From: Protonemura montana
Lineage: Eukaryota > Arthropoda > Insecta > Plecoptera > Nemouridae
Direction of reading: 5' to 3'
DNA length: 64,000 nucleotides
Assembly (NCBI GenBank): GCA_947568835.1
Contig: OX387606.1
Location: 5,270,001-5,334,000, forward strand
Shown here one piece after another: positions 381 through 62,426 of this stretch. The translations under genes and the position numbers were made by a program. Position 1 is the stretch's first letter; the number at the start of each line of letters is the position of its first letter. A model generated the notes under the pieces. That model saw only the letters and a list, made by a program, of their open reading frames with translations, had not been told where the DNA came from and ran no database searches.

Positions 381-836
381 GGCCGAATGGTTTGACATGT
401 TGGAAACACCGGTTCTCGTTAGATCACCAAAGTTAAGCAACACTGCGCTGGGTCAGGTATTGGATGGGTGACCATCATACACATGACCAGTTCTGTTCGG
501 GAGAGAGGTTGGAGGGATGAAAGTTAGTACAGCAACTTTATTCGCCTTGCTTATCAACCTCTCGACAGCATGGATTTGTGGAGGAATCCTGCTGTTCGAA
601 TTGTACCGTCCTTCGGAAGGGACGTTAAGCCGGTGGTCCCCCTGGTGCTCCTCGACAGGAGTAGGCTACGTGCCGCACCGGGTTTACCCTCCTCCCTTCT
701 AGGCTAGGCTAGGTTCATCATCATCCTCATCATCATCCCCTCATTCACCGACGCCTTTAGACCAGTGCCGCATGGCCAGATGTCAAAACAGTGCGTCGTT
801 AAACACCATAAATAATAATAATAATAAAAATAATAG
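381..836 (+). mobile_element. Full-length 5S rRNA-headed SINE (copy A)
   Basis: The head (about 400-480) resembles 5S rRNA: GTTAAGCAACACTGCGCTGG corresponds to the box A region and GGATGGGTGACC to the intermediate element/box C, the internal RNA polymerase III promoter of 5S genes. A body of about 330 bp follows, with GGAGGGATGAAAGTTAGTAC, a (TCATCA)n stretch and GTGCGTCGTTAAACACC, then an (AAT)n tail. CTGATAT at 374-380 and 837-843 is a likely short target-site duplication. This is SINE3-like organisation (known class); the family itself is not identified. At least six other full or partial copies lie in the window. Confidence 0.88.
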
Positions 837-1595: not shown

Positions 1596-1859
1596 GCAAT
1601 AGCAAGCTTTCGAGACTTTTCATGCTCAAATGATCTCCATCATTTTTTACCTCAACGATTGATATACACGTAACGATATTAAAAAGCGAATAACCAACGA
1701 GAAATATCGAAATTAATTTTCATACGACAGTGACTCCACTTAACGGCGTGTTCCGGTACTCTGCATTTTTGTCGGTAAAGTAGTCATTTGACGGCCATCT
1801 TTCACGCAGCAAGTTTAACATTAACGTTCTGCCTCTACCTAGAACCTGCACACTCAACG
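1596..1859 (+). mobile_element. Truncated copy of foldback MITE (family of 15008-15413)
   Basis: This stretch matches the loop and right arm of the foldback element at 15008-15413. Shared blocks include ACGATATTAAAAAGCGA, TTCCGGTACTCTGCATTTTT and the end CTCAACG. The left arm is missing or too diverged to see, so this is a broken, non-autonomous copy. It encodes nothing. Confidence 0.75.
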
Positions 1860-2275
1860 CTAGTATTATGTCAAAGAAGGTTATAATTTTTGCAAAATAT
1901 GTTTTTCATTAATTCAACTGAAACTAATACCAGGCGTCTAAAGTTTTAACTTCATCTCGACTTGCACACAATGGCGTCGTGATAGCAATTTCTAGCAGTT
2001 CATGTTTTTACCAGTTTTTACCAGTTTTAGCATATTCAATTTGAAAATGAATAATGTATTATGAATGTGAGTGAATGGTAAATATCTTCTAGCATAGAAC
2101 ACCATCATTACCTACTGTAAAGTGTTTGATTTTTTGTCGGGAACTTTCTCGATCGCATCCAAAAATTCTTTGGTACCTCTTGGTGTAAGAAAGAAATTTG
2201 TATTCGTGTTTAGTTATTCTGTTAATAATATTATTATTATTATGATACAAGTCAATTAAAATTCTAGTATTTGTC

Positions 2276-2430
2276 ATGTTGATGGTTTTTAGACTCATGT
2301 CTACTTGATTTATCCTTAGCACTAGTTTTAAGGAACACTATTTGAAATGGGTTTTGAATGCTAAGTAAAGGACAACTAAATTTTGTTGTCCTTTACTTAG
2401 CATTCAAAACCCATTTCAAACATTTTTTCT
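2276..2430. mobile_element. Foldback/MITE-like element with perfect 36-bp palindrome
   Basis: The arms at 2341-2376 and 2385-2420 are perfect reverse complements around the 8-bp spacer TAAATTTT; the left arm begins TTTGAAATGGGTTTTGAATG. The flank TTTTTAGACTCATGTCTACT...CCTTAGCACTAGTTTT recurs at 37733-37790, and related arms occur at 46135-46460 and 63258-63495. It is a small non-autonomous repeat family of unknown superfamily. A perfect palindrome this long points to a recent insertion or to gene conversion between the arms. Confidence 0.8.
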
Positions 2431-5400
2431 TAATTTTTCATTTTCTTTGTCCTATTTACTTTTAAAAAGTTTTCAAGCAGCTATTCTGAAACATTCATTG
2501 AAGCTATTTCTGTAATACATGCGAATGCACTTTTTTTGTTGATTAGTTAGGTATCGTTTATTAGAATTCATCCGGGTGATATTTGGTTTTATTTTTAGGT
2601 TCCATGCTGATTTTCAATTTTTATTAGATTTTTTAAAATTATATTGACAGAATGAGTTCTTTTAATTTTTGATAGTGCGAACCAGTGCCGTAACTAGGTA
2701 TTTCTGGACCCAGGGGCAAGATTTTTCGTTGCCCCCCCACCCCACCAGAAAACGTATACTAGATGTTTCAAGCCACGAACTAAATTTTCCCGGGGATAGC
2801 TTCCCTTAATATAAACAGCTAATTGTCTTTTTTTTCTGTCAGCAAATAGCCAACATGATTGACAATACGCGACATCAAGTCAAGGTGAGTAGCGAAGTCC
2901 CGTTTTGTATTTAGCCCAGCCGGTAGTTACGCCACTATTGCTAACCCATACCACCCTTTATTTTATCGTGACAGACTTTATCCCTTGAATTACCAGATTG
3001 CCAAAAAAAGTGAAAGGTTCATAGTATGCTGATTGTAGACGAGGTCAATGAACGCGATATTCTTATCATGCGAGGTGTTGGTTCAACACACCGGATTCCA
3101 AGATAGATTAATAAGGGGTTTAAAATACCAACATTTGTAACCTACACGATTTGGAGTTGCGTTGAGTTTGTTATTTCAAGGTCGATTTACCTTCGAGTCT
3201 GCGTTGATATGTTTACCTTTTTGAACTTTAGGATGCTTTATTATTTTAGTTGCTTCTGTGGGTGTGCTGGAAGTTGGTTTTGATGATCGATTTACAGAGA
3301 ATATGTGAAAACTTCTATACATTTTGAGATGATTCGGCCATAAGGGAGTTTTTAAGCAGGAATATCACATTATTTTTTAATATATCTATACAGAAGAATG
3401 TTTAGTAAAAACGTCGGGCAGATAGTTTTATCTATTTTTTAATATCTATCGCTTAAAGCCAAGTAAGTAGGAGTTGGTTTGTTGTGGAGGTGCCGTGTTT
3501 TCCGCACTGTGGGTTGCGTTCAGGGGAATGAGAAATGGCTCATTATTCCAGTAGGTAAATAAAAAAACCATGGTACCTACGCATGAACCACATTAGGCGT
3601 AAAATTATAGATTTTTTTCTTACTAAAAAAAAATGTTTGAATTAAATTTTAATTAAATCAATATTTATTGCAACATATTTCAACAAAATAACCTTTTATT
3701 ATGAGAAGGTTGCATCATATTTGATTAAAAAAAAACGTTTCTCGTTACGAGCAGGTACCGGACCCTAAATATAATGGTATTTAGGGTCATATTTAATGTT
3801 ATTTAATGTCAGGGTCATATTCAAATTTCAATTTCAAATAAGTTTCAATATTTTTACTTCACAGATACTTAACAGAGAATTTTTCAGAAATCGTCTACTT
3901 TGTAAAGTTGAAAAGTTAATTTTTATCGTTTTTCTTGGTTTTATGCAATTTTTTATAAACTTGATTATCAAATCAACGTAATTTTTTATTTTTAAGCCCC
4001 GCTTGGCATCGTTTATACATTTTTATCCCTGTCATGGTCACAGCTTTATTCAATTCCACGAATTTTGATGAAAGCATGCTTCAAAATGAGGTTGTAATTA
4101 CAGTTTGTAATATCAGCGTTTTCACCGACGCAGGCAGTCTAAATATACTATTTGTGTGGATTTTTAATTTTAATTTTTTACCATGCATTTTCTAGGAATA
4201 AGACCACAATTAAAGCCGCATAATTTCCTAATAGCATCGGACTTTGATACCCGGAACGGGGCACGGTAACCTAGTAGGGGTTCGAGAAAATTAAACCGTG
4301 AAAATATTATCTCTATTATTTTCTCTGTGTGGGTGGGAACACAACAATAAACGCACGCGCTTGGGATTACAAAAATGTCCACGCCAAAGGATTCGCAAGT
4401 TGGTTTGAAAATTGAATAAACTTTAAGTTTGTTAAAGTGCTCACGTACTCAGTTTTAGGTTAGGTAACACGTCGCCAAAAATATAAACACATCGATTACA
4501 AAAGCAACGGAATTGGGCTCTGAAATACCAAAATTCTGACAGAGCGTAAATTTCACCTGTCAGTAACCTGTAGTCAATATCTAACATTCAAAAACCGTTC
4601 CACGCGTTACTTTCAAACCGTAGCCCTGAACCCCTACGGCGACTTAACGTTAGGTAATTGAATACACATAAAAAAAAGTTACACAACATTTAATCAATCG
4701 CGAAGTACTTCTGATTGCGGTTAGATCAAATTGGAAGCCATATACATCGATTGCATACTAGCCTAGCCTAGCATAGAATCGCAAATTGCTTGCAAGCTAA
4801 TTTACAAACTAGAACAAGCTTTGCAACTAGCACTGAAGTTTGGCAGAGTTTTAACTATGGCTTTACTTTCCTCTCTGCTAACTTTATCTTTTATTCATGA
4901 AAAGTGAAAGTATTTTTTTTTTATTTCTGATAATTATTACCATCATTGATTTCGATTTAAAAGCCCTTGTTCGGGAAAACTGAGGTAAGAATTTTCCTGA
5001 GTGCTTCCAGAATTCGCCGTCCTGAGCCCGTCCTGGGAACTAAGACGTTATTGAACACGGTATCGTTTCATCGATACGCACTCAGAGGCTCTGTATGTAT
5101 GCTGATAGAATTAAAAGACGTAACCCTAAATCCTCGACGGCGTATATTAATGTTATTTTATTTCACTTGTTGAAAATTGTACTTACCTTGATCGGAGTGT
5201 TCCCTGCACTGAGCGCTGTGGTCTGTGGGCAGGTAATAATATACAATTTCATTAGTAAGCACAGTCCTGTGTTATACCTACTCTCATGCTCCAACTCAAC
5301 ACAACACAACTCCACGAGAGCTACGTTCTGAGAGTCGTTTTGAGCGTTGTTTTTTTATTCAAGTAATTTTTAAATTGCAACTGAATAGGGACATCTCCTT

Positions 5401-7625: not shown

Positions 7626-8724
7626 GTTGGTATGCAAGTTGTCACTAAAGGTGATTGGTGCCAAAATCTAGATGCAATTGGAGTGCCTTATCTTTATTCT
7701 TTGAATACCTAGCTTACCGAGATATTTATTTTTGCTATACTTTCATTCGGCGGCCGCTCTAAAACAAACAAGACTCAAATAAACTGCATCAAAAATTTCA
7801 AAGCAGATATGAGTATGTTTTTCCCCTGCCTAGTCGCATGGAAATTGTCGATTTATTTGATAAATTATCACTGAACAATTTGTTATATATTCTTATGCAA
7901 ATAATTTTAAACCTTAATTCGGAAAATTAGCATGTAGAATGTAGTTAATTTTTTGTAATCTAGTTATATTTCAGTATTATTATTATTTGTGGTGATAACG
8001 ACGCACTGTTTTGACAACTGGCCCTGCGGCACTGGTCTAATGGCGTCGGTGAATGAGTGGATGATGATGAGGATGATGATGAACCTAACCTAGCCTAGAA
8101 GGGAGGAGGGGAAACCCGGTGCCGGCACGTAGCCTACTCCTGTCGAAGAGCACCAAGGGGACCACCGGCTTCACGTCCCTTCCGAAGGACGGTACAACGC
8201 GAACAGCAGGATTCCTCCACAAATCCATGCTGTCGAGAGGTTGATAAGCAAGGCGAATGAAGTTGCTGTACTAACTTTCATCCCTCCAACCTCTCTCCCG
8301 AACAGAACTGGTCATGTGTATAATGGTCACCCATTCAATACCTGACTCAGCGCAGTGTTGCTTAACTTCGGTGATCTAACGAGAACCGGTGTTTCCAACA
8401 CGCCAAACCGTTCGGTTATATTTCAGTACTTGATATGTGCACAGATTCCTTTTTGATTCAATATCAATGCTTAGAAGAACCTGTTGTCCCTGGTAATCGT
8501 GAACCTGAATAGCACTGCATAGAACTTTGCGCTATTCTAAAGCTAATATTTATTTAGTGCCCGAATAGTTTTTATTCGCCGTCCAAATAATCGGCATGAT
8601 CGATGAAGAAACTCTGAAAAACATTTTTCTTGAAAAGCCTCGGACCAAAAAGCGTACAGCGATGCTTTCTGACCTCGAAGATAGCCAAGGCCGCCTAGCT
8701 CATTCACTTTACACTGCCCTGTAG
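7626..8724 (+). other. DNAH1 intron, 1.1 kb
   Basis: The intron is largely occupied by a complete 5S-headed SINE in antisense orientation (7977-8414) with a 14-bp target-site duplication. The remainder is AT-rich and shows nothing recognisable. It ends at CCCTGTAG. Confidence 0.8.
7977..8414 (-). mobile_element. Full-length 5S-headed SINE (copy B) with 14-bp TSD
   Basis: On the minus strand the element runs from ...CGAACGGTTTGGCGTGTTGG (8414 side) to a (TAA)n tail at 7977. It is flanked by the direct repeat GTTATATTTCAGTA at 7963-7976 and 8415-8428, a perfect 14-bp target-site duplication. That length fits target-primed reverse transcription driven by a LINE enzyme. The 5S-like promoter block (GGTCACCC...TTGCTTAAC on the plus strand) is intact. 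This copy gives the best definition of both ends of the family. Confidence 0.92.
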
Positions 8725-15007: not shown

Positions 15008-15413
15008 GTTGAGTGTAGGTTACAGGTAGAGAAACAACGTCAATGTTACAGTCTCTGCGTGAAATATGGCCGCCAAATGACTACCTTACCGACAAAAATG
15101 CAGAGTACCGGAAGATCACGTTAAGTGGAGCCACTGTCGTATGAATTTTAATTTCGATATTTCTCGTAGGTTAACTCGCTTTTGAGACTTTACATGCTCA
15201 AAAAATCCCCATCAATGTTTACCTCAACGATTGATAAACACGTTACGATATTAAAAAGCGAGTAACCTACGATAAATATCGAAATTAAATTTCATACTTA
15301 ACGTGACGTTCCGGTACTCTGCATTTTTGTCGGTAAGGTAGTCATTTAACGGTCATCTTCAAGCAGAGACTGTAACATTGACGTTATTTCTCTACCTATA
15401 ACCTACACTCAAC
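15008..15413. mobile_element. Foldback MITE with ~170-bp arms
   Basis: Left arm about 15008-15190, starting GTTGAGTGTAGGTTACAGGT; right arm about 15248-15413, ending ACCTATAACCTACACTCAAC. The arms are reverse complements with scattered differences and small indels around a ~55-bp loop. GACAAAAATGCAGAGTACCG occurs in one arm and its complement in the other. There is no coding capacity. A truncated relative lies at 1596-1859. Probably a non-autonomous DNA transposon of unassigned superfamily. Confidence 0.85.
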
Positions 15414-28776: not shown

Positions 28777-31700
28777 CTAATATGTATGAAAATGATTTCC
28801 TGTGTCCCTATCACAAAGACACACGCTTCCCCACTGAGTAAATTAGTGATACTAATAAGTAATATTGTCTTTTAAGTAAAAAACAGAATTGAGAATAATA
28901 TGAAAATTGTGATATTTTTATTTGATGGAACCTAAAATGTAGGTATTAAAAATGTATTACCCAAAATGGACCACCCGTGTAATACTAACCAGTAATTCTT
29001 TGTGTCCAATAAAATAAATAGATAAATTAATTAATAATTAGATAAATAATCGAATCGAATGGTAATTTTAATTAGCACCCTCATTTAACATTTACTATAG
29101 CTAAAATCAGTTTGCACACCTCACATATTTTCGAGATACTGAACGGTTTTTATAAAATAAAATAAAACAAAACATTTTCCGCAACAGTGAATTGTAAATT
29201 CTAGTATTTATTCGATAGTGAGACCACAGATTGACATACACAGATATATCACCTTACCCAGCTTTGGCTACGGCACGCTACGGCAAAAAAATACTTGTTA
29301 CGCGAGCACTGAGGGGCGCTGGCATCGCGATGTATAGTAGCATCAGTTGAATATTGGGCCACCAGAGTGCAGGGTAATCGGTTTGACCGAGTGGTGGGGC
29401 GAGAGTACAGCTTGCTGAACTAAAAAATGGGTACTGGATTTGGCGAAGTACTTGTCATTGGAAAAGGGATCGTGTTAGTGTTAAAAATTGAAGAAAATTG
29501 AGGATTTAGGTGCAAACGTCGGTACACTGCAGCTGAATAAAAAGAAAGGCGAGTCCATTATCACATTTAAACTATATTTTAATCGCAAGCAGGGACATAT
29601 GTGTGTTTCCTTCTGAAGGCACTGCAAGCTGACAGTACCTATTTTGTTTCTATTACAAATGCATAATGGCTGGGGAAATAAAAATACATTAACAACAATA
29701 TATTGTTATATTTCAGGTTTCAATTTGAAGAAACTAGAACAAAAAGTCAGTCTCATCTAAAGAGATCAAATGAAAATACAAAGCAAGTCCCAATACCAGG
29801 GGCGCCGACTACGTGTGTGCCCGAGAGCTCGAGCAACCCTCGAAAACTCTTTGGATATTCTCAAATCTTTCGATACGAGATTTTTTTCCGTAACTCATCA
29901 ATAGCTGTCAACATTCCAGGGCTAAAAAGTAAAAGCCATCCGTATGGCATGAGTTGCCGTACAGTAAGATGGTTCAAAGAATCTTACAAAATCATTCTGA
30001 AAAATATATGACAACAGCTATACTCACTCATAATAATATTGACTACGCGATCGCGAAACTATAAGCTTGGCCAAGGTCAGCGCACCGCATACCCTTTGTA
30101 AGGCAGCGCCGACAAAGCAATGCGAATACCCCTATTTTTGTAGTTTCCACTCTCAGTACATGACCGATCCTTTCGTAACAAGAACGACCAGCAATGATGT
30201 CATTAAAGGGGCACAAATCACGTTTTGGTCAGTTTGCAGTTTCAGATTATGTGTCTAGCTATGCGTCTAGATTTGATTTGGAACAAAACACTACTGAATA
30301 TCTAAGCCGATTTGCGATAAAAATGTTCCGAGAATCGCTAATACCAGAGCCATTTAACTCACAAAACCATCTTATGCTAATAATTGAATTTCGAAATTTT
30401 TTAAAGCACCATTACATTCGGCATCGAAACCTGATTTCAAATCAGTTTGAATTTTTGTTCTAATGTTGAAACTACCCTCTCTAGCATCAATTTACCGTGA
30501 TCAACCAGCAAGGTTACTGGGCCACCTGCTCAGTCTCGCCAAACCATCGTAATCGCCTGGCGATATTATTATAAAACCCAGCAATGCGGGAATTCCAAGA
30601 AAATCAACATTGAGATAAGCACCCGCCAAGTCAAAGTACCTATCATTTAATAGATTTTCGAAATTTGAAACAATCCACATTACTTTCCGAAATTTTCTAT
30701 GCGGAAATCTTTTTTGATCGACATCCTAGCCCCAGATTTAGCGATTTGACATTAGTTCTCACCCAACAATTTCAATATGACTTGGTCATGATCGTGAATT
30801 TATGCAATGAGAGGCTCACAGCGACTTCCAAGCGTGTTTATATAAGCAATAGTCTAGGAATATCGAGCGGCTATCTCTTCAAATAGAGAAGTTAGGATAT
30901 TCGGTGTTATATAAAGCTGAAATTTTGATATTATGTGCATAACACCATGACACAACTATTGTCACAAACCCGGACAAAAAATTTTCATCGGAAGACATTC
31001 AAAAAAATTACCAAAGTCAAAATTTCTTAAAAAATGAAAATTTCTTAAAAGTTGAATAAGTATGTCATTTTTGAATTTATAAACGTCTAGTTTCCGCAGA
31101 AGCCTAGGCATTAATACGTTATATCGATGCCGTTTTTAAAAAACATCAAAAAGTTTTTTCTAACCTATGATATGAGCCAAAAAGTAGCTAAAAAAAACGC
31201 AAAAAAAATATATACCACTTTTCACTTAATGCCACGGGACTAAATATTGGCCAAATGTTATAAAACGAGTTTGTGAAGATAGCTCAAATCTTTGTCTACA
31301 AGACTGCAGATCTAACTTTTTGAACACGTCAAGTTCACAACTGAGATTTTTGCTTTTCCCTACGAGAGGTAACTCTTGGCGCGCTGCCAAGCGCCGATAA
31401 GCCGTGCGGCTGGCTGGCATCCACCGAGTCTAACGGGCTGCAATATGGTATCACAATTTAGTTCAGTAGCAAGCATTTTACTTGCCGAAATAAGCAGCCG
31501 ACTAGATTTGACATATCTCGTGTACGATTTATAGCTAAGAAAACTCGTTCATGACATCGCTCTGAGGTGCATTGTGACAATATTCTTTCTGTACCGAACT
31601 GAACTTCTCGGTGCAATAAATTGAACTAATTAACGGTGTAACTAATAATGAAAATATACAACAAAGCAGGGAACAAGAAATCACCCTTTATGTACTTAAT

Positions 31701-32019
31701 CCTATTTCTTATTGATTTCTTATTGAACCACGCAGATATTTGATATTTGATATGTTTATTCAACTTGATATTTTATTGAAACGAATTTGAATTTGATCTA
31801 AAAAAAACGATCGCGAACTTCGATCTTCGATCGCGATTGTTTTTTGACGACGATCTTGATCTTTTTAAAAGATCGCTTTCAAAACGATCTTCCCCAACTA
31901 TGGCACCAGAGCATCATTATAATTATTTTCTGGGATGTTTACATTTTTCTTCAATGTTGGACTTGCTCGAACTCCGCTGCAGTTATCGCCTGGATACAGT
32001 AGGATAGCGGCAGCGCTGA

Positions 32020-32161
32020 GAGCGAATGTGAGCGAAAGGACTTTAGACCGATGACCGAGCAAGCTTGGAACAGATAGTAAACTTGAGAGGGAGCGAATGT
32101 GAGCGAAAGGACTTTAGACCGATGACCGAGCAAGCTTGGAACAGATAGTATACTTGAGAGG
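32020..32161 (+). repeat. 71-bp direct tandem duplication
   Basis: GAGCGAATGTGAGCGAAAGG...CAGATAGTAAACTTGAGAG at 32020-32090 is repeated at 32091-32161 with essentially one difference (GTAAAC versus GTATAC). Two units only; recent duplication. It lies about 400 bp left of the long-TIR element. Confidence 0.92.
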
Positions 32162-32569
32162 TACCGAACGTAGCGCCATCCCGTGTCCAGAGGGCAAACT
32201 ATTTTAGCTTGTGGGTGAGGGGATTGGCGCGAATCTTGCGGGGCGAAAGCTTTCGCGTAGCTCCCAATAGCATAGGAGTGGACAATCTGTGTATGTCTAT
32301 CTGTGGTGAGACCGACTGACGAAGTACCGTTATCTACCCGCTATTCACCCTTCACAATGAGCGCCCTACCCAATGTGGAACCCTGTGCACGCCTATGTGC
32401 CTGAAAGAACTTCCCGATACAAACCAATTATAGCTGGCGTGCTAACAGGCTCCATCACGTTCTCCCGCTCGGATGACCACGGGACATACCATGCTCCCAG
32501 CATGGGAAATTTTGTTCGGTTGCCACTCATTTCCCCTTTAGGCGAAGATTTAAAACTGAAAACTGAAAT

Positions 32570-33376
32570 TTTGTTACCTCGGTGGTATATCAAGCTGAAT
32601 TTTGTACCACGTGTTCAGAACACCCTAGAGGGGCTGTGAAACATTCTACACCCGAATCGTCCTTCCGGAACAACCCCAAAAAAATTGCCAAAGTCAAAAT
32701 TTCACGAAAAAAATGGAAAAATTGCTTTCGCGTTCACTAAAAATACAGACTTATTAGAAGTTCCAAATATCTTCTGATGCATTCTGTAACATATGGGTAG
32801 TAATATTATTTGTCAATATTCCGACATATTTTTATTTTGATAGTCGAAACCCGAAAAAAATAGACCAAAAATCGCACTAAAACGAAATACGCGGCGCAAA
32901 GTGAGTTGGTGTATGCGAACTATTGGTTTCCGCGAACTTTTATTAGTACCATTCGATAGATCTGTTCTTTGGGCACTAGGAAAAAATATAAAGTTACCAA
33001 AACGCAAACTTCATAGCAGACTTTTGTCCGAAGAAGCGGCGCGCGACGCGCGCAACTCTTTTCCCGCCGTTTTTTACAACGTCTTAAAAACACTCACAAA
33101 GCAAAAAAATCTCGCATTTTTGCTAGAAATCATGTCAGACTATTTTATTTGACATCCCTATATGAAAAAAACACAGCATTTTCATCCCCTAAAAAACACC
33201 CCTATTTGCATTTTTTCGTATTTTGCGTTATCCTCGCAATTTTTGGTTTGCAATTAAGTTACATTTAGAGTAAGCGGCTAAATAATATTACATGTGATAT
33301 ATATTGCGAATAAGGGGTAAAACATCCCCCTGTAGACTACTAAAATAACCAGCAGTGGTGTACATTGCCGTTAGTT
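32570..33376 (+). repeat. Left terminal inverted repeat (807 bp)
   Basis: This arm starts TTTGTTACCTCGGTGGTATA and ends ACATTGCCGTTAGTT. It is the reverse complement of 35760-36566, and equal arm length indicates few indels since insertion. It contains an 83-codon open frame (32901-33152) that is identical in the other arm, and several A-rich runs. TIRs this long and this similar imply a young insertion or recent arm homogenisation. Confidence 0.95.
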
Positions 33377-33488
33377 CGTCGTCCACCCAATGTACCACAG
33401 GGCATCTAATGCGATATTTTATTGTATGTATAAATTGTTTTAGTACTTGAGATATTTATAATTAACAAGGTTTTATCAGGAATGCAAT

Positions 33489-33742
33489 TTACAAGTCGTC
33501 TTCGTCGTCAACAAATTTAGCATTGTTGAAAGTGTTGTGACAATTGCTGCAGCAGCGGCACACTTCTGTGCATGCAAGGCCATCGCGATTACAAATGCAT
33601 GTTGTGGACCGATTGCACTGCAATTTCGTCTTGCACGTGCAAAAAAAATCGCTAAGTTTCTCAGTCACACAGAGGCCGATGTAGTAGACCGGAGAAACAA
33701 AATTCGCTCCTTCAATTCTCTGCCAGCCGTGATCAATCGGGC
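33489..33742 (-). CDS. Long-TIR element gene, last exon (Cys cluster)
   Basis: The acceptor TTTTAAAG (minus strand) precedes GCCCGATTGATC; the phase fits the previous exon (LPNIP|S PIDHGWQ). It reads RIEGANFVSPVYYIGLCVTE, FFCTCKTKLQCNRSTTCICN, RDGLACTEVCRCCSNCHNTF and ends VDDEDDL with TAA at 33489-33491. Spacing C-x-C-x5-C-x5-C-x-C-x6-C-x3-C-x-CC-x2-C suggests a zinc-binding tail (inference). An acidic C-terminus closes the protein. The exon has no ATG, which is why a simple frame scan misses it. Confidence 0.8.
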
Positions 33743-33832
33743 CTTTAAAACAAAAATTTAAATTACAAAAATGAACCGATAAAAAAATGAAATATTATCA
33801 TGTAAATTTGGAAACAAGACAGAGCATCTTAC

Positions 33833-34369
33833 TTGGAATATTGGGAAGTTGCTCGTGTGCTGTCGTCCAGGTCAGGCACTGCCATGCAGCTCGCTTGACA
33901 TGCTGTAAGAAGGAGGCTTCGCACGGTGGTAGTTTTGAAACTGAAATCGACCTTGCTGTTGACATTTTGATTCGCATGTCATTTAAAGAGCCGTGTTGAG
34001 TTTTAAGCTTCTTGCCTTGGTCGTAGAGAACAGCCACAAATTTCCTAGCTTCATCCACAGCATAGTTGTCATTTCCTTTGTGAAAGTTTGCAAGCATTGA
34101 AATCTCGTCTTCGCTCATCTTTAGAGCTTGATTTAAAACCTTCTTCTTACCGATTCCATAAAAAGAGGAAACTGAATCGCAGCCTGTCAATGCGTGTATT
34201 GCTGGCAATGCGGCGCAAACATGACTGCCTAACTTCTGTGCTATTTCGTGAAGGGGGACGAATCTCTTTTTATTCGCTGTCTTGGATATGACACCAGTTT
34301 CCAGCCAAACGCTGTCGATGGACGTCATTATCGGGGTGTATTTTAGGAGTAGAACCATTACATCTGTAT
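33833..34369 (-). CDS. Long-TIR element gene, PIN/XPG-like exon
   Basis: Acceptor TTTCCTCCTTAG and donor GTAAGA on the minus strand; 537 nt. It begins TDVMVLLLKYTPIMTSIDSV, then TGVISKTANKKRFVPLHEIA, CAALPAIHALTGCDSVSSFY and GIGKKKVLNQALKM. DTDV.VLLL and HALTGCD..S.F.G.GK recur in large uncharacterised proteins of cnidarians and other invertebrates. GCD....I.GIGPK is the helix-hairpin-helix region of FEN1/XPG nucleases, so a PIN-like nuclease fold is likely (inference from motif). The first codon needs one base from the exon before (G or similar) to give the usual D in DTDV. Confidence 0.8.
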
Positions 34370-34470
34370 CTAAGGAGGAAACATCCCGTCATTAATTTAC
34401 ATAAATACAATTTCCGCCAACAACATTTTCTCCAAATTTCCATGCTTTTAACTTGCTAAAATAAAATTAC

Positions 34471-35338
34471 CTGGCGACTGCACGATAATGCGCCTTTTTG
34501 TTCCGGCAGCGCGGTGAGCCGAGTTGAAGTGCACAGCATGTAGTATTATCTCTATCCACACCCTCGTGAATTAGAAACTCTCTAAATTTCGTGCACACGA
34601 GAGGTAGAGGAAAAATTTGGCCAGCAATCAAATCACTTTCGAAATGTGCACAAGTTAAGGATGCAGCTTTTTCGTACACGGACTCGCTTTTCCTTCGAAT
34701 AGCGGCTTGGATATTTTTTTCTGAGCAATATTTCTGCTGGCAGACACGATGATACCTAGCATTTTTGCAAGACAAATGTTTTTCAAAAGTTAACCTGTGA
34801 ATGATTATTTCGTCTGATCGGCGAATTGCACAAGCCAATATATTTTCACGAAACATGACAGGCATCATGTTTACCAAGGAGTGTTTCCCCCCCTTTTTCT
34901 TTCTGTCTTCAATGTCACCGCATATGATGAAACAATGAAGATCCCAATCGAACAGTTTTGTTTCTGCTCGAGACACACGCTTCGGTTGAACCGAATCATC
35001 GACTTCATCGTCAACTGTGGTCAGTTTTCGCTTTTTCAATATGGATAGCCGGCGGCTGCTGGTAAATTCAACTCGACACGAAGTGTGGAATTTAAACGGG
35101 AAATATTGAGCCTTCTTTTTCGGATTTACACGATCAAGGATACGTCTAGAAGCATCATCGTTTCTCGCTTCGCAAGCGACAAGAATTGCATTTTTTCCCT
35201 TAGAAGTGATTGTAAGTGATCGTTCTTCTTCTGTCAAAACTCCCTTCTTCCCTTGACAAAAGACGCAGGCTTCATTCTCAAGAACAATATGCTGACGTGC
35301 CCTGGATGGCCCAGGAGCGTTTAAATCGATGTCCTCAT
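34471..35338 (-). CDS. Long-TIR element gene, large N-terminal exon
   Basis: 868 nt on the minus strand after acceptor TTTTCTGCATTAG and before donor GTAATT. It reads (D)EDIDLNAPGPSRARQHIVL, ENEACVFCQGKKGVLTEEER, later HTSCRVEFTS, CFIICGDIEDRKKKGG and HLSCKNARYHRVCQQKYCSE. The pairs CxxC, C/H in the YH..C.QKYC motif and the basic stretches suggest zinc-binding N-terminal modules. The exon ends in phase 2, but the next exon needs phase 1, so the two cannot be joined as they stand. That mismatch fits loss of middle exons by a deletion with both ends in introns. Confidence 0.78.
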
Positions 35339-35447
35339 CTAATGCAGAAAATAAATGAATAGGTATGAGGAGATTTGTATCACACCGCCCTAAGGCTAAG
35401 TCCTCTACTTTGTTTTAATTAACCAATGTGTCTTGAACTTAACTTAC

Positions 35448-35451
35448 CCAT
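35448..35451 (-). CDS. Long-TIR element gene, start codon mini-exon end
   Basis: On the minus strand CTTCAATGG|GTAAGTTAAG offers ATG G followed by a strong donor at 35447. Joined to the acceptor at 35339 (109-nt intron) it gives M-D-E-D-I-D in the frame of the large exon, with no other ATG upstream in frame before the acceptor. The start and splice are inferred and lie 309 bases inside the right TIR boundary, so the promoter is probably within or next to the TIR. Confidence 0.55.
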
Positions 35452-35759
35452 TGAAGATCAGTTTACAAATCCATGAAATGATGTAGGTACACACATTAAG
35501 CGTTATTATATTCGCGCACAATTACCATATTTACTGATTGACACTAGTACATCTAAAATTGCATAATTCACTTGAAACTATCAGCACTGCACTATTCCTC
35601 AGAAACCAGACCGTGTACCGCTCAGACGAGTGTTTTGAGCCAACTGAGGAACAAACCCTTAACATTTGCAGATACCAGATGTAACAAATATGGCATATTT
35701 ATGGTGTTCTGGCACTAAAAGTATTTAAAATGAACTGCAGCGGTGAAGTAACTGTCTGA

Positions 35760-36566
35760 AACTAACGGCAATGTACACCACTGCTGGTTATTTTAGTAGT
35801 CTACAGGGGGATGTTTTACCCCTTATTCGCAATATATATCACATGTAATATTATTTAGCCGCTTACTCTAAATGTAACTTAATTGCAAACCAAAAATTGC
35901 GAGGATAACGCAAAATACGAAAAAATGCAAATAGGGGTGTTTTTTAGGGGATGAAAATGCTGTGTTTTTTTCATATAGGGATGTCAAATAAAATAGTCTG
36001 ACATGATTTCTAGCAAAAATGCGAGATTTTTTTGCTTTGTGAGTGTTTTTAAGACGTTGTAAAAAACGGCGGGAAAAGAGTTGCGCGCGTCGCGCGCCGC
36101 TTCTTCGGACAAAAGTCTGCTATGAAGTTTGCGTTTTGGTAACTTTATATTTTTTCCTAGTGCCCAAAGAACAGATCTATCGAATGGTACTAATAAAAGT
36201 TCGCGGAAACCAATAGTTCGCATACACCAACTCACTTTGCGCCGCGTATTTCGTTTTAGTGCGATTTTTGGTCTATTTTTTTCGGGTTTCGACTATCAAA
36301 ATAAAAATATGTCGGAATATTGACAAATAATATTACTACCCATATGTTATAGAATGCATCAGAAGATATTTGGAACTTCTAATAAGTCTGTATTTTTAGT
36401 GAACGCGAAAGCAATTTTTCCATTTTTTTCGTGAAATTTTGACTTTGGCAATTTTTTTGGGGTTGTTCCGGAAGGACGATTCGGGTGTAGAATGTTTCAC
36501 AGCCCCTCTAGGGTGTTCTGAACACGTGGTACAAAATTCAGCTTGATATACCACCGAGGTAACAAA
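35760..36566 (-). repeat. Right terminal inverted repeat (807 bp)
   Basis: Reverse complement of 32570-33376. It ends CCACCGAGGTAACAAA at 36566, only 180 bases before dynein exon 10. An 83-codon frame (minus strand 35984-36235) is identical to the one in the left arm. Because the arms are nearly identical, transcripts through the whole element could form a long hairpin. Confidence 0.95.
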
Positions 36567-36746
36567 CTTTTTTGTTTGACGACTTTTCGGGTTTAGAATC
36601 CTCGCCTACTTCAAATGTGGTGTGGGGAGAGCTGTGAGTTGCGTGTTCATTAGACAGTTCTGCGATATGCATGTAAACCTTCTTCTTCTGTCGAGGTTGG
36701 TTACTCCCATCGTATGTGTAGCCAATTTGCTTGCTGGTCTTTTCAG

Positions 36747-36980
36747 GAAAAGGATCAGGTGGTCGTTCTGTGGTACCACGAGTGTTGTCGAGTCTTCCAG
36801 GATCGTCTTGTTAACGACAAGGATCGCGCCTGGTTTGACGACCTGCTGCGTAAGCGCATCGCATCCGCTTTCTTGAGTGACGCTGACGTTGTCCTTGGAG
36901 ACAGTACCATACTCTTCGGAGACTTCCTTGACCCCAACGTCGATGTGCGGCTCTACGACGTCATCAAAAACATGGCCAAG
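36747..36980 (+). CDS. DNAH1: DNAH1 exon (AAA3-AAA4 junction)
   Basis: 234 nt, phase 0 to 0, acceptor GTCTTTTCAG and donor GTAAGA. It reads EKDQVVVLWYHECCRVFQDR, LVNDKDRAWFDDLLRKRIAS and ILFGDFLDPNVDVRLYDVIK. The pattern LWYHE..RVF.DRLV...DR.WF..LL and I.(F/Y)GDF..P..D.R.Y is standard for the AAA3 C-terminal helices and the lead into AAA4. It lies just downstream of the long-TIR element. Confidence 0.96.
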
Positions 36981-37732
36981 GTAAGATAGCAGCTTACAAA
37001 CAGCTTTTAAGCATCAAACAACGTTTGATGCATGGCTAGGTATGTATGCTTTTTTTCTTTTCTTCATTTTTTTTTAATCATAAATTCGGAGAAATTAGAA
37101 GAGCAGCTGACGCGTCGGTAAGCCAAACTATCGCTGTCGTGGCTAGGTTGCCTGTAATATTCTAGGCTCAATTGGTACGTTTTTAAAAGGTGTATGTTTT
37201 TTTTAATAATGCCAGGTTGATTGCATTAAGGGGGTTTTCATATGGTTCTTGAAAATCGACATAAAGGCAAATCTGTTTGCATGGTTTTATTCCCACGCGT
37301 TGCAGAGTCATTAAGAAAATACTGAACAAATTATTCTGCGGGAATAATACTAAATATTACGAAAAAAATAATAATCACAAGCCAAGAGACTCGACTTGGA
37401 CTGAAAGTAAGTTTTTATTTTCACTCACTCTTGTGATCCCGTTTGAAAGGTATCAAAATCTTTCCTTGCCAGCGAGTTTTCCATTAATTTCACTATTAAA
37501 ACCCCATTAAATCGCCGTATTAAGTGTCACATTTAGTTATGCTCCGAAATAGTGTACTGCCATTTAACATTTGTACTGTAAACCATTTCCAGCCGTTTTC
37601 AACCGATTCCGGCAATTTCTACGCGGGGTACAAATTTGCACATGTGCAAAGTGCAACATACTGACATACCGACAACCCCCGTTACATGAAAATGATGTCA
37701 CGTAAATCAAGGCTTTTGTATAAGTAGATACT

Positions 37733-38633: not shown

Positions 38634-41600
38634 TTAATGATCAGTACATTTTTTTTACAACACAAAACGGTTACAATATGGTTTCACCATTCTTAATTGT
38701 ACAGTGTTATGGTTTACATCAAATCAAATCAACAATTTTTATTTTACAAAATATTATAAGAAATACAATTGAAATACAAATACAAATATTGTTTACATTG
38801 TGATTATTTCTGACACAGCAAAATGGTAACCATTTGATTTCACCTTTGTGACTTGTTGCAGTGTTATGGTTTAAATGAAATCAATTCAGTAAATTATAAG
38901 AATACAATTCAAATTTAATTATAATTTGCATAAAGAAGTGAAATAGTTTGAATTTGCATCAAGAAAATTCCTTCTGTTTCATATCAATTTAGCTATCTCA
39001 AGCGTTTTATTTCTTGGTTCAAGTTTTCCCAAGACATTTTTGATCAACCAAATTTGTTCAAATTCATTCAGTGCTTCCTTGTTTATGTGGTGGGTGTATG
39101 CTATGTTTAGTCTAGGCTATGTCTAGGCTATGGCTAGGCTATGGCTATGGCTATGTCTATGTCTAGTCTTAGGCTATGTTTAATTTAATCTAGTTAGAAA
39201 AAATTTGAAGTAATTTGGTGGTTGACTGTCTGTTTGGAGTGATCTAAGGTATGAGATGGTACTTTTACCCAAAATTAATAGGAAATTTCCTAAGTTGTGA
39301 GGGGGAGATTGTAAGTTTGGAAAACCTGTGATTATATCTTCAGCAGTGATGGCCTTCTTGTTTGTAAGAAGTTCCAGTTTTTGTGTGAGAAGACTCCAAA
39401 GAGGCTTTACCATTTCACATTCAGTAATCATGTGAAATAGTGAACCTATTTGATTCCTGGGACACCAAAGACAATTAAGAGTGGGTCTTATTTTGCATTT
39501 ATATAGAAAATGTGGTGAGGTACCTCTGCTATGAAGTAATTTCCATGATATGTCTGCATCTCTTGATAGTGTGGGATATGTGTTCAAATTTACCCAATTA
39601 ATTACTTTTGGTGACCACTGGGACAATCCTGATAGTCGTGGATTTGAATTCAAATTAATTGTTAATGATGTTGTGTATATTATGCTACTGCTTACAGGGA
39701 TAAAGTATTTAGAATTGGTATATGTGTAAGAAAATAAAAATTGCGTTTGTGTTTGTGTTACTTCTAGAGCTGAATGTAGCTTAGGAAAGGTTTTCTGAAA
39801 GTAATTTTTCGCTTCTAACAGGTTTTGGCCTAAACGTCTTTTCGTAGGAGTCGTCAGGGTATTGGTAACAATTTCGTTGATGGTGCGCCAGGATCCGTCC
39901 TCCTTCCCCATATCGCCTATTTTGGACATTCCTAAAGCACACCAATCTTCTGCAAAAACGAATTTTCTGTTTTCTTCTTGCGTCAGTAGTTTACAATCCC
40001 ACATGGGGTATGATCTTATCTCTTCTATTGTTTCATTTGTGGATGGTGTGATGTCGAACGACTTCCACGTGTCCATTGCTTTCCGGTAGAATGGTTGAAG
40101 ATTTGACAGTTGATCATTCCAAAGGTTGATTATAAAAATTGATTGCGGTGAAGGGAGGTTACCGTACTTTTTGAAGTTATATTCTTAGAATAATTTTGAA
40201 ATTGAATTAGTGTTTTCAGGTTTGAGGTAATTTTGTAGAAATTTCAATCTGAATGTACTAATTCTGGATGGAATTTGCGTGACTCCCAGTCCACCTTTTG
40301 ATATCGGACTGTATATGTAGTTGGGATGGAGCCAGTGTCGTCCATTTCAAATGTAGTTTATCACCAACTTGTCAATTGTGGCGAGGAACTCTTTCGTCGG
40401 GTTGATGGCCATCAGTGCATGGTTGAATTGTGATCCGATGAGTTGATTTACTACAATGCGTCTTCCTCGAAGCGAAGTTACGGTGTTGAAGTTTTTCCAT
40501 TTGGAGAGGGTGAATTTAGCCTTTGTCTCAAGATGAACCCAGTTTTTTTCTTGCCATGCTGCGTTCCCGAGGAATATTCCCAGGAATTTTGCACCTGTAT
40601 TAGACCGTTTGAAAGCCAGCGGGGAGTCTGTTCGTGAGCTCCACGCCCCGGTGAAAAGACCTGATGATTTGCTATTGTTCAGGGCTGCTCCAGACATCGA
40701 TCCGTATTGCATAAATAAGGTGTTTAGTTTTTCGAAACCCTCTTCTTTCGTGACGAGGAAATTAACATCGTCCGCATAGGCTGTAACTATGAGATGGTGA
40801 TCATTCGAATCCGGAACCGGGAGGGAGAACAGTTTGAGTTCCTTGTTACAGAGTTTTAGGAACGGTTCAATGGAAATGGAAAAAAGAAGTCCAGATAGTG
40901 GATCGCCTTGTCTGATTCCTCTTCCAAAGTGAAATGGTTTTAGAATGTTGTTGTCCAATCATATGAAACATCTGACGTTGGAGTAGAGTGTTGATATTAT
41001 TTTCCTGAAGTTTTCGCCAAAGCCGAATGTTTTCAGTGCGTGGTGAAGGTACGTATGTTCTACACGATCAAAGGCTGACTTTTGATCCAGTGAAACAATT
41101 CCGAGGGGTAGGTTTTCTTCATTTGTGTAGTGAATCGTGTCTCGAATTAGATGAATGTTCGTGAAAATAGACCGTCCAGGTACACAAAAACTTTGGTCAG
41201 AGGTCAAGAGGTTTGGTAAAACATGACCTAAACGGGTGGACATTGATTTGCTTATAATTTTGTAGTCTGTGTTTGGCAGGGAAATTGGCCTCCAATTGCT
41301 AAGTTCAAGCCTATCCCCGCCCTTTGGAATAAGTATGAGTAGAGATTGTTGGGTCGACTGTGGCAGTTTGCCGATGCGAAAGGATTCAAGGGTCATTCGT
41401 TTGAAGAGATGTTGTAGATTTTTCCAGTAGAATTGGTAGAATTCAACGTTGAAACCATCCATTCCAGGCGCCTTAACTTTCTTCATTTGGTACAATGCGT
41501 TTGTGAATTAATTTAAGGTTATGTCTTCATCGCATTTAACTCGTTCTGTCTCAGACAATTGATTTAAATCTTGGAAAAGTGGAGACGATTCAAGTACTAC

Positions 41601-51319: not shown

Positions 51320-52611
51320 GTGAGCTAAAATATATTTGCATCTCGATTCCTTGCTTTCACTGAAAGTTTTCCTGAAGGGTTTTGCAGGCCGAGCTCTGGA
51401 AAGTCGTTATTCATTCCGTCCTTGTAATAAGATAGCGTCAAGTGAAATGGAGCTTCACCCTTCTAGGATCTTACATGGCAATTAAGATGGAAATCTGTTT
51501 CACTTCAAGTAGTATCTTGTGTGCTTAGCGTGCGCATTAGAAAAAAAAAGAGTTTTTGCCCGTTTGCATATTTTATTTTCATTTTGTTCGGACATCTGCG
51601 ATCGCGCAACGGACCCTCTGATGTATCCAGGAATTTCCACTTTTAAATAAAAGAATTGCTTTTTTAGAGGGTTTTTCTTCTTTTTTTTTACTTTTCGTGA
51701 ATTATTTATGAAAAAATCTATTTACTGTAGCTTAATTAAATTTTTGGATCCTCCACTTTATTGCGAAACGTGTTTGTTATGTTTTGTTTTTTTGTTTTAT
51801 TTTTTCAATTAAGTACAGAAAATTTAACAAGAAATTCTACCCAAGTTTCAAGTAAGTGAACTACCAACGAGCAAGCCCCGAGATCTTAATGACGTTCTGG
51901 TAAACATTGAAATCACGGGTTTTGTAAATAATATCCCGAGGCACATTTCGCTCAATAGGCATTAGACGCGAGACATTCAAGTGTAGAACCACACAGCCTG
52001 GCTTTCAAATGTTTAAATATGCTAATGGAGTTCGTATTTCATTACTGTAATTTTTTTAATGTAGTAATCAATTCGGCAAATAATATCCAAGCAATTAATT
52101 TTCGAATTTCGAATGGCGTTTTACAAATATTTTTATTCGTTTTTGTTGACACGAGCGTATGAGTCACTGCTCCTAAGACAAACCACTTGAGAATGTTGTA
52201 TGAGTGTCATTTTTGTGTGTTTTATTGTTCTCGTGATTCGATTTTTACAAAATTGTTTGGATACCGTCAAAAGGCCGCGCTCAAGGTCAAGGTTATATAA
52301 TGCCACTGTTAGTAATTTAGCACCGCCAAAAGGGTTATATAATGCCACTGTTAGTAATTTAGCACCGCCAAAAGGGTTATATAATGCCACTGTTAGTAAT
52401 TTAGCACCGCCAAAAGGGTTATATAATGCCACTGTTAGTAATTTAGCACCGCCAAAAGGGTTATATAATGCCACTGTTAGTAATTTAGCACCGCCAAAAG
52501 GGTTATATAATACCCCCGGTCGTATAATGTAGCGCAGTAGCACCACGGAAGCACCGCTAAATATGTAAGCCCTAGGTAAGACCCCGTCATGACACCCATG
52601 TGTTCCCACAG
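51320..52611 (+). other. DNAH1 intron, 1.3 kb
   Basis: Holds a 42-bp minisatellite (52291-52511) that ends 100 bp before the acceptor. The rest is AT-rich and unremarkable. The long frame on the minus strand (52133-52819) is a product of the repeat plus antisense of exon 14. Confidence 0.82.
52291..52511 (+). repeat. 42-bp minisatellite, five-plus units
   Basis: GGTTATATAATGCCACTGTT followed by AGTAATTTAGCACCGCCAAAAG repeats five times without visible differences, plus a partial unit at each side. Since 42 is 14 codons, open frames persist on both strands and mimic a repeat protein (ALYNPFGGAKLLTV units). Identity between units indicates very recent amplification. Confidence 0.95.
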
Positions 52612-52714
52612 CCCAATTGGTGAGATTTTCCGAGCTCGTTTGCGACAGTTTCCCGCACTTGTGAACTGCTGCACCATCGACTGGTTTAGCGCATGGCCGG
52701 ACACCGCCTTGCAG
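52612..52714 (+). CDS. DNAH1: DNAH1 exon (AAA4, post-sensor)
   Basis: 103 nt, phase 2 to 0, acceptor GTTCCCACAG and donor GTAAGC. With the split Ser it reads [20 protein letters not shown] and [41 protein letters not shown] is nearly invariant in axonemal heavy chains. Confidence 0.97.
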
Positions 52715-53020
52715 GTAAGCAATCGCTATTGTGTCGGACTTATAGAGGCTGGTTTTAGCCTTTCGAGGCCATGGGCTTACTTTGGAAGTCGATAGTTGAC
52801 TTTGCGGAGTAGTGGACAATCAGAATTTGTTTGATTGTTTTAAAACTAAAGATAGGTGGCGCAACTATTGACTTGAAGGTAGCCTATGTTCCGCGCCAAT
52901 CCTTATTTAAATCGGATTGGCTCATTCTTGCAGACGACACAGAATTTAACCGCAAAAGTGTAAACAAAAACTTTGCGTTTACGGTTACGTTCTATTGTTG
53001 CAATGCCACTTGAACGCCTA

Positions 53021-56159: not shown

Positions 56160-56598
56160 ATTTGTGGTGTTTAACGACGCACTGTTCTGACAACTGGCCC
56201 TGCGGCACTAAACTAATGGCGTCGGTGAATGAGCGAATGAGTGAATTATGAGGATGATGATGAATCTGACCTAGCTTAGAAGGGAGGAGGGGACACCCGG
56301 TGCCGGCACATAGCCTACTCCTGTCGGAGAGCACCAGGGGGACCACCGGCTTAACGTCCCTTCTGTAGGAAGGTACAACTCGAACAGCAGGATTCCTCCA
56401 CTAATCCATGCCGTCGAGAGGTCGATAAGCAAAGCGAATGAAGTTGCTGTACTAACTTTCATCCCTCTGACCCCTCTCCCGAACAGAACTGGTCATGTGT
56501 ATGATGGTCACCCATCCAATACCTGACTCAGCGCAGTGTTGCTTACCTTTGGTGATTTAATGAGAACCCGTGTTTCCAACACGCCAAACCGTTCGGTT
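56160..56598 (-). mobile_element. 5S-headed SINE (copy D)
   Basis: Full-length minus-strand copy from TTTGTGGTGTTTAACGACGC at the left (3' tail) to CACGCCAAACCGTTCGGTT at the right (5' head). The 5S-like promoter block (GGTCACCCATCCAATACCTG on the plus strand) is intact. There is no convincing target duplication. Confidence 0.88.
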
Positions 56599-61524: not shown

Positions 61525-61725
61525 CAACTCAAGGAGCAGGATTCCTCTACAAATCCATGCTGTCGAGAGGTTGGAAAGCAATTAAGGCGAATGAAGTTGC
61601 TGTACTAACTTTCATCCCTCCAACCTCTCTTCCGAGCAGAACTGGGCATGTGTATGATGGTCACCCATCCAATACCTGACTCAGCGCAGTGTTGCTTAAC
61701 CTGGGTGATCTCACGAGATCACCTG
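61525..61725 (-). mobile_element. 5S-SINE, 5' half (copy E, continued)
   Basis: From AACTCAAGGAGCAGGATTCC to ...CTTAACCTGGGTGATCTCAC this is the promoter-proximal half of the SINE that starts at 60152. Together the two halves make one element. The last bases of the 5S head are replaced by the sequence of the duplicated unit that follows. Confidence 0.88.
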
Positions 61726-62006: not shown

Positions 62007-62426
62007 TATTATTATTATTATTATTTGTGGTGTTTAACGACGCACTGTTTTGACAACTGGCCCTGCGGCACTGGTCTAATGGCGTCGGTGAATGAGTGGA
62101 TGATGATGAGGATGATGATGAACCTAACCTAGCCTAGAAGGGAGGAGGGGAAACCCGGTGCCGGCACGTAGCCTACTCCTGTCGAAAAGCACCAAGGGGA
62201 CCACCGGCTTCACGTCCCTTCCGAAGGACGGTACAACTCGAACAGCAGGATTCCTCCACAAATCCATGCTGTCGAGAGGTTGATAAGCAAGGCGAATGAA
62301 GTTGCTGTACTAACTTTCATCCCTCCAACCTCTCTCCCGAACAGAACTGGGCATGTGTATGATGGTCACCCATCCAATACCTGACTCAGCGCAGTGTTGC
62401 TTAACTTCGGTGATCTCACGAGAACC
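62007..62426 (-). mobile_element. 5S-headed SINE (copy F)
   Basis: Nearly complete minus copy with (TTA)n tail at the left (62007-62023) and CGGTGATCTCACGAGAACCTG at the right, where the 5S head is cut short exactly as in copy E. The body is very close to copy B (GTAGCCTACTCCTGTCGAAA versus GTCGAAG). Part of the tandem unit described below. Confidence 0.9.

What the first reader, a model, noticed from the sequence alone, without database searches (positions are those of the whole stretch)
32570..36566. 4-kb element with 807-bp near-identical TIRs and a PIN/XPG-like multi-exon gene
Seen: two 807-bp arms in inverted orientation with almost no differences around 2.4 kb that carry a minus-strand gene with clear splice sites. 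The conserved TDVMVLLL and HALTGCDSVSSFYGIGKK motifs occur in a large uncharacterised family found in many invertebrate genomes, often as isolated proteins of unknown role. Known: FEN1/XPG nucleases have GCD...GIGPK; Academ transposons carry an XPG-type domain. Inference: this family belongs to a DNA transposon, and this copy shows its borders. If it is not Academ, it is a new superfamily.
Basis: partly seen in the sequence, partly recalled or inferred. Interest (0 to 1): 0.88.

Follow-up and report, generated by a model that had tools for sequence, protein, structure and literature searches.

The report
Jumping gene carrying a repair-type nuclease
The finding is a shortened copy of a recently mobile jumping gene whose full version encodes one large protein that joins a transposase to a FEN1/XPG-like repair nuclease; it fits the known Academ (AcademX) group, so it is a good new member rather than a new kind.

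Summary
The 807-bp arms are not the ends: near-identical copies share 31 and 42 bp more outside them. The element is 32539-36608, TAGGCGA...TCGCCTA, flanked by a 3-bp duplication (CTT). Six of 7 complete copies have 3-bp duplications; two empty sites for a sister copy lie in this window.

Such duplications plus a nuclease are what is published for AcademX (PMC10045372, passage). So: a well-bounded, recently active AcademX family, not a new superfamily; no Academ reference sequence could be compared. Less expected: arms are rewritten to identity within copies.

The parts
32536..32538 (.). Left copy of the 3-bp target-site duplication (CTT)
32539..36608 (-). Whole element in the window, 4,070 bp; internally deleted, non-autonomous copy (gene on the minus strand)
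   Evidence: shared boundary of the near-identical copies, empty sites of the sister copy L035, 4,070 vs 7,308 bp
32539..32569 (+). True left terminus outside the arm (31 bp), TAGGCGAAGATTTAAAACTGAAAA...; imperfectly complementary to the right terminus
32570..33376 (+). Left sub-terminal arm (807 bp)
33489..33742 (-). Exon 4 with stop codon; encodes the C-terminal cysteine-rich (CXC-like, by naming of relatives) end
33833..34369 (-). Exon 3; second half of the FEN1/XPG-type nuclease (DTDV, TGCDSVSSFYGIGKK)
   Evidence: fold of a homologue
34471..34548 (-). 3' remnant of exon 2, out of frame after the deletion
34549..34550 (.). Deletion junction: 3,237 bp (element positions 2014-5250 of the C16 copy) missing; 2-bp overlap TC; same junction in the copy at C4:25.82 Mb
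34551..35338 (-). 5' part of exon 2: two N-terminal Cys/His (zinc-binding-like, by pattern only) modules
35448..35451 (-). Exon 1 coding part (ATG G) with donor GTAAGT
35760..36566 (-). Right sub-terminal arm (807 bp)
36567..36608 (-). True right terminus outside the arm (42 bp), ...GAATCCTCGCCTA
36609..36611 (.). Right copy of the 3-bp target-site duplication (CTT)

Best explanation
The feature is a 4,070-bp, non-autonomous copy of a recently mobile DNA transposon of the AcademX kind. The complete element is 7,308 bp, with TAG...CTA ends and 31-42 bp of imperfect terminal repeat outside two 807-bp, nearly identical arms. It encodes one four-exon protein of 1,632 aa: zinc-like modules (likely binding the ends), an RNase-H-fold DDE transposase that cuts and joins 3' ends, a FEN1/EXO1-type nuclease, and a Cys-rich end. 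Shown: borders, duplications, copies, open frame, conservation of both active sites; shown by prediction on a homologue: both folds. Inferred: the protein moves the element by cut-and-paste with 3-bp staggered insertion. The fused 5' nuclease is proposed to cut or trim the 5' (non-transferred) strands at the ends, dividing the work with the DDE domain as TnsA and TnsB do in Tn7 (recalled). The window copy arose by internal deletion, probably during incomplete gap repair, and deleted copies are moved in trans by an intact copy.
Confidence: 0.88

Rival explanations
1. A new superfamily of DNA transposon that merely resembles Academ (same duplication length, independently fused nuclease).
For: No significant Pfam match for the three long exon frames and no NCBIfam match for the two scanned; only some relatives reach DUF6589 (2 of 6 above cut-off; L042 below cut-off). 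No Academ reference could be compared.
Against: 3-4-bp duplications and a nuclease are the two traits given for AcademX (PMC10045372, passage). Relatives occur in groups where Academ is reported, such as bivalves (Mercenaria; PMC10294476, passages) and Bemisia (PMC9143410, passages).
Confidence: 0.07
2. A local inverted duplication around a host gene, not a mobile element.
For: The arms alone would look like this in a single window.
Against: Nine near-identical copies on six contigs, 3-bp duplications and empty sites.
Confidence: 0.01
3. It is an AcademX transposon, but the XPG-like module is not part of the cutting reaction: it is a captured repair enzyme that helps heal the donor site or processes hairpins and cruciforms formed by the long arms. 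(A rival on mechanism only, so its odds overlap with those of the best explanation.)
For: Closest folds are repair enzymes EXO1, FEN1, XPG and the junction resolvase GEN1; the arms show within-copy sequence exchange.
Against: The nuclease carboxylates are conserved nearly as strictly as the DDE triad (102-105 against 104-105 of 105), and the module sits in the same polypeptide in both families of this genome.
Confidence: 0.35

Closest known systems
AcademX lineage of the Academ superfamily
   Same: DDE-type transposase with a nuclease in the same element; 3- or 4-bp target-site duplications (PMC10045372, passage); length of several kb (Academ mean 5,565 bp in bivalves, PMC10294476, passage).
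   Different: Not compared by sequence with any Academ reference. Long, internally homogenised sub-terminal arms are not mentioned in the passages read. That the Academ nuclease is of XPG type is recalled; no held paper has both words 'Academ' and 'XPG'.
AcademH
   Same: Same superfamily by name (PMC10045372, passage); relatedness of the transposase core was not tested.
   Different: AcademH has a helicase and 9-10-bp duplications; no helicase match in L034 or L042 proteins, and duplications are 3-4 bp here.
FEN1/EXO1/XPG/GEN1 5' nucleases
   Same: Predicted fold over residues 747-1119 of P0033 and the carboxylate set; the VFD..IK..R..R and GCD...GIGK blocks align with EXO1 in the same order, at weak score.
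   Different: Fused to a DDE transposase; the glycines of GxGK are not strict (73 and 83 of 105).
P element, hAT (Hermes) and retroviral integrase RNase-H-fold enzymes
   Same: Fold and order of D, D, E with a helical insertion before E.
   Different: P element and hAT make 8-bp duplications and have no XPG module (recalled).
Nuclease-bearing Kolobok lineages (KolobokP, KolobokD, KolobokE)
   Same: DDD/E transposase accompanied by a nuclease (PMC9587614, passages).
   Different: Kolobok makes TTAA duplications and uses His-Me, DEDDh or lambda-exonuclease-like nucleases.

Membership tests
Academ / AcademX | 3- or 4-bp target-site duplication | tested here: met
   Family 1: 3 bp in 6 of 7 complete copies, none in the seventh. 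Family 2: 3 bp in 9 and 4 bp in 2 of 11 copies read.
Academ / AcademX | DDD/E (RNase-H-fold) transposase | tested here: met
   AlphaFold model of a P0033 slice, pLDDT 92.2; best matches P-element transposase and other DDE enzymes; D, D, E in 104, 105 and 105 of 105. Foldseek alone gave no E <= 0.001.
Academ / AcademX | Nuclease encoded with the transposase (XPG type is recalled) | tested here: met
   EXO1/FEN1/XPG fold of P0033 and carboxylates.
Academ / AcademX | Sequence match to Academ reference transposases | not testable with these tools
   Repbase and the Yuan and Wessler profiles are not held; two papers looked up by id (PMC3093488, PMC7165386) are not in the library.
AcademH | Helicase domain and 9-10-bp duplications | tested here: not met
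   No helicase Pfam match; duplications 3-4 bp.
FEN1/XPG nuclease superfamily | PIN-like nuclease fold with H2TH end | tested here: met
FEN1/XPG nuclease superfamily | Metal-binding carboxylates and arch Lys/Arg | tested here: met
   In 105 sequences: D 104, D 105, K 105, R 94 and R 105, E or D 104, D 103, D 103, D 103, D 102. Equivalence to FEN1 residues is by motif and recall.
Kolobok superfamily | TTAA target-site duplication | tested here: not met
   CTT, TTA, TAA, ATA, TAA, GTT.
P element / hAT superfamilies | 8-bp target-site duplication (recalled) | tested here: not met
   3-4 bp.

The most novel reading that the evidence does not exclude
This lineage uses two nucleases in one polypeptide for one reaction: the DDE domain cuts the 3' strands and the FEN1/EXO1-like domain cuts the 5' strands, so that the long arms, which can form hairpins or cruciforms, are processed by the same enzyme and are rewritten to identity within a copy, perhaps at each round of movement. 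That would be a eukaryotic single-protein counterpart of the two-enzyme Tn7 strategy, with arm homogenisation as its visible trace.
Probability: 0.25. Interest if true: 0.72.

Novelty: new member of a known kind. Interest (0 to 1): 0.42.

Why it matters
Many unnamed proteins, a good part of them from animals and about 1,400-1,650 aa long (216 and 292 relatives in two searches whose sets may overlap), become readable as transposases with two active sites, and DUF6589 gets a likely function (RNase-H transposase core). A genome that holds a copy with an open frame, deleted siblings and empty sites is a direct place to test why a DDE transposase needs a flap-type nuclease.

Tried and rejected
Rejected: local inverted duplication; TTTGTTACCTCGG as the terminus; the window copy as a complete element; the 9.4-kb C1 copy (L037) as the full-length form: it is the 7.3-kb form with one stop codon in the main exon and a 2.1-kb nested element carrying a DUF7869 match.

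Led nowhere: Pfam on the C16 exons (no match for the main exon; only chance-level names for exons 3 and 4) and NCBIfam on the main exon and exon 3 (none); phmmer of exon 3 against PDB (ankyrins, best E 0.025); profile search of PDB (EXO1 on top but E 0.075); Foldseek alone (no E <= 0.001); folding of the left terminus as single-stranded DNA (z -0.54); papers PMC3093488 and PMC7165386 (not held); papers with both 'Academ' and 'XPG' (none) or with DUF6589 (none). A link to helicase-bearing AcademH proteins could not be seen: only the best 120 of 216 and of 292 relatives are listed, and none of those listed carries a helicase domain in its precomputed Pfam column.
Full report
What is there. The repeat finder gives one inverted pair in 31500-37600: 32566-33376 and 35760-36570, 811 nt, 2,383 nt apart. 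Searching the window's own genome (G000, 258 Mb, 34 contigs) with one arm gives 45 matches: 16 at 99-100% identity and 29 diverged. The 16 are 7 complete pairs and 2 single arms. The nine copies carry the same letters beyond the arm on the sides that are present, and a probe of the right end finds 8 exact right ends, 8 matching left arms and 16 diverged places. BLAST against the window puts the shared boundary at 32537-32539 on the left and at 36608 on the right in most copies (36612 and 36615 in two, where a few outside letters happen to agree). Printed ends show TAGGCGAAGATTT... and ...GAATCCTCGCCTA in each copy that has that end, with unrelated DNA outside. The element in the window is therefore 32539-36608, 4,070 bp. 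The 12-base end motif occurs at these two places only in the window at up to one mismatch; 5 of 100 shuffles also gave at least two matches, so the motif alone is weak evidence.

Target-site duplications. Next to these ends, 6 of 7 complete copies have a 3-bp direct repeat: CTT (window), TTA, TAA, ATA, TAA, GTT; the seventh, the C16 copy, has none. The L035 copy sits in a repeated sequence; when its flanks are joined with one copy of the duplication, the join matches window 1606-1824 (87%) and 15175-15379 (84%) without a break at the junction; a third match, at 15042-15183, stops short of it. The first two are empty sites and fix both border and duplication.

The complete element. Against the C16 copy (L034, 7,308 bp) the window copy lacks 3,237 bp at 34549/34550, with a 2-bp overlap TC. 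The copy at C4:25.82 Mb (L038, which lacks its left end) has the same junction; L033 (C11) and L035 (C4) share two other junctions and have different duplications, so deleted forms have moved. L032 and L036 have junctions of their own. Of the six distinct junctions, four show 1-5 bp of overlap and two show 9 or 25 bp of filler; overlaps of 1-2 bp can be chance. This resembles incomplete gap repair after excision (inference). In L034 the minus-strand gene reads ATGG | intron | exon 2 | intron | exon 3 | intron | exon 4 with GT..AG joints and gives 1,632 aa with no stop. A whole-genome protein search, which scored 29 of 350 candidates, finds the whole main exon twice at 99-100% identity: uninterrupted on C16 and with one TGA on C1; the C1 copy also holds a 2.1-kb nested element. 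In the window copy the first 270 residues, the N-terminal zinc-like modules, remain in frame.

The protein. The main exon has no Pfam or NCBIfam match. Relatives: 54 with the single sequence, 216 with a 31-sequence profile and 292 with part of the second family's protein (the best 120 are listed in each of the last two, and the sets may overlap). Two of six relatives scanned pass the Pfam cut-off for DUF6589; the L042 protein matches it below the cut-off. The zinc-like modules and the CXC-like end are read from Cys/His spacing and from source names of relatives ('Tesmin/TSO1-like CXC'), not from a Pfam match. In 105 aligned sequences (103 of the 169 relatives listed by then, chosen by me and mostly near full length, plus L034 and L042) the proposed transposase residues are D 104, D 105, H 105, E 105; the nuclease residues are D 104, D 105, K 105, R 94, R 105, E or D 104 (96 E, 8 D), D 103, D 103, D 103, D 102, K 100; the two glycines of GxGK are looser, 73 and 83. 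The equivalence to FEN1 residues is by motif and recall; two blocks were aligned to EXO1 by HMMER at a weak E of 0.075.

A second family. The genome search with the protein also hit C2:14.31 Mb (26% and 28% identity in two stretches). There an uninterrupted single-exon frame of 1,489 codons lies between 423-nt arms that are 99% complementary; BLASTP to P0033 gives 25% over 1,225 columns. Its end regions match many other places at 91-95% (42 and 41 matches, with 40 of 153 and 40 of 156 candidates scored). The ten copies whose ends I read span 2.6-3.0 kb by these coordinates, too short for the gene. Ends of those ten and of L042 read TAGCCCAGG...CCTGGACTA; duplications are 3 bp in nine (TTA, TTA, TAA, ACA, TTA, AGA, TTG, TAT, and TTA for L042) and 4 bp in two (TACT, TATA) (read by eye). 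The layout is the same: imperfect terminal repeat outside long, nearly identical arms, 36 and 26 bp in L042, 31 and 42 bp in family 1.

Arms rewritten within copies. Over the 738 alignment columns shared by the arms of the seven complete copies, within-copy differences are 1, 0, 0, 1, 0, 5 and 7 for L031 to L037. Four of the 19 variable columns carry a change present in both arms of one copy and in no other copy (two in the window copy, two in L035), and a fifth is in both arms of L034 and one arm of L036; the siblings L033 (both arms) and L038 (its one arm) lack these changes. A single mutation does not reach both arms without exchange, so arms have been copied onto each other within an element. 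Against a simple picture: in L036 and L037 no change is shared by both arms, so exchange is not continuous. In family 2 the arms of L042 are 99% alike while other copies' arms are 93-94% like them, which fits. The numbers are small.

Comparison with the known. PMC10045372 (passage) states that AcademH makes 9- or 10-bp and AcademX 3- or 4-bp duplications and relates this to the helicase and nuclease they encode. PMC10294476 (passages) uses Academ as one of 17 DDE/D superfamilies and gives a mean length of 5,565 bp in bivalves. PMC9143410 (passages) reports Academ copies in Bemisia. That the Academ nuclease is XPG-like is recalled (Kapitonov and Jurka 2010; Kojima 2020), neither of which was seen beyond reference lists. 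On this basis the element is filed as AcademX, with direct sequence comparison left open. I saw no mention of homogenised sub-terminal arms in the passages read; this is not a claim that it is unpublished.

How it probably works (inference except where cited). Zinc-like modules bind the ends; the DDE domain joins 3' ends to target DNA with a 3-bp, sometimes 4-bp, stagger (duplications); the 5' nuclease, conserved nearly as strictly as the transposase triad, cuts or trims the 5' strands or processes hairpins made by the arms. The alternative, that it only repairs the donor site, is not excluded.

Noticed in passing
L037 (C1:18669545-18679291), locus positions about 1923-4026: A 2.1-kb element nested in exon 3 of this copy, with a 4-bp overlap at its borders and a typed 399-aa stretch matching DUF7869 just above the cut-off; probably another uncharacterised transposon family.
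   Followed up: partly
P0066 and P0093: Two proteins of this family are deposited as 'MAG: Sedimenticola sp.' on 7-8-kb contigs; likely animal host DNA binned into a symbiont genome.
   Followed up: no
P0051-P0054, P0237: Nymphon proteins named sodium channel, degenerin, integrin and zinc finger, and a Frankliniella 'Elongation factor 4', contain stretches of this transposase: probable chimeric gene models with misleading names.
   Followed up: no
L034 (C16:23721127-23728769): The complete copy with an uninterrupted frame has no matching target-site duplication (tct / aaa), so it may be rearranged or have lost it.
   Followed up: no
window 39180-40184 (-): Open frame with a weak zf-RVT match (E 0.0049, below cut-off): probably the end of a LINE.
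   Followed up: partly
window 32020-32175: 71-bp tandem repeat, 2.2 copies, about 360 bp left of the element.
   Followed up: no
window 429-526, 8272-8368, 56453-56550, 61606-61700, 62311-62407: A dispersed unit of about 97 bp that also recurs many times beside the copy at C4:25.83 Mb (L040).
   Followed up: no
window 52133-52819 (-): Open frame with a repeated peptide (YNPFGGAKLLTVAL), i.e. a tandem DNA repeat in frame.
   Followed up: no
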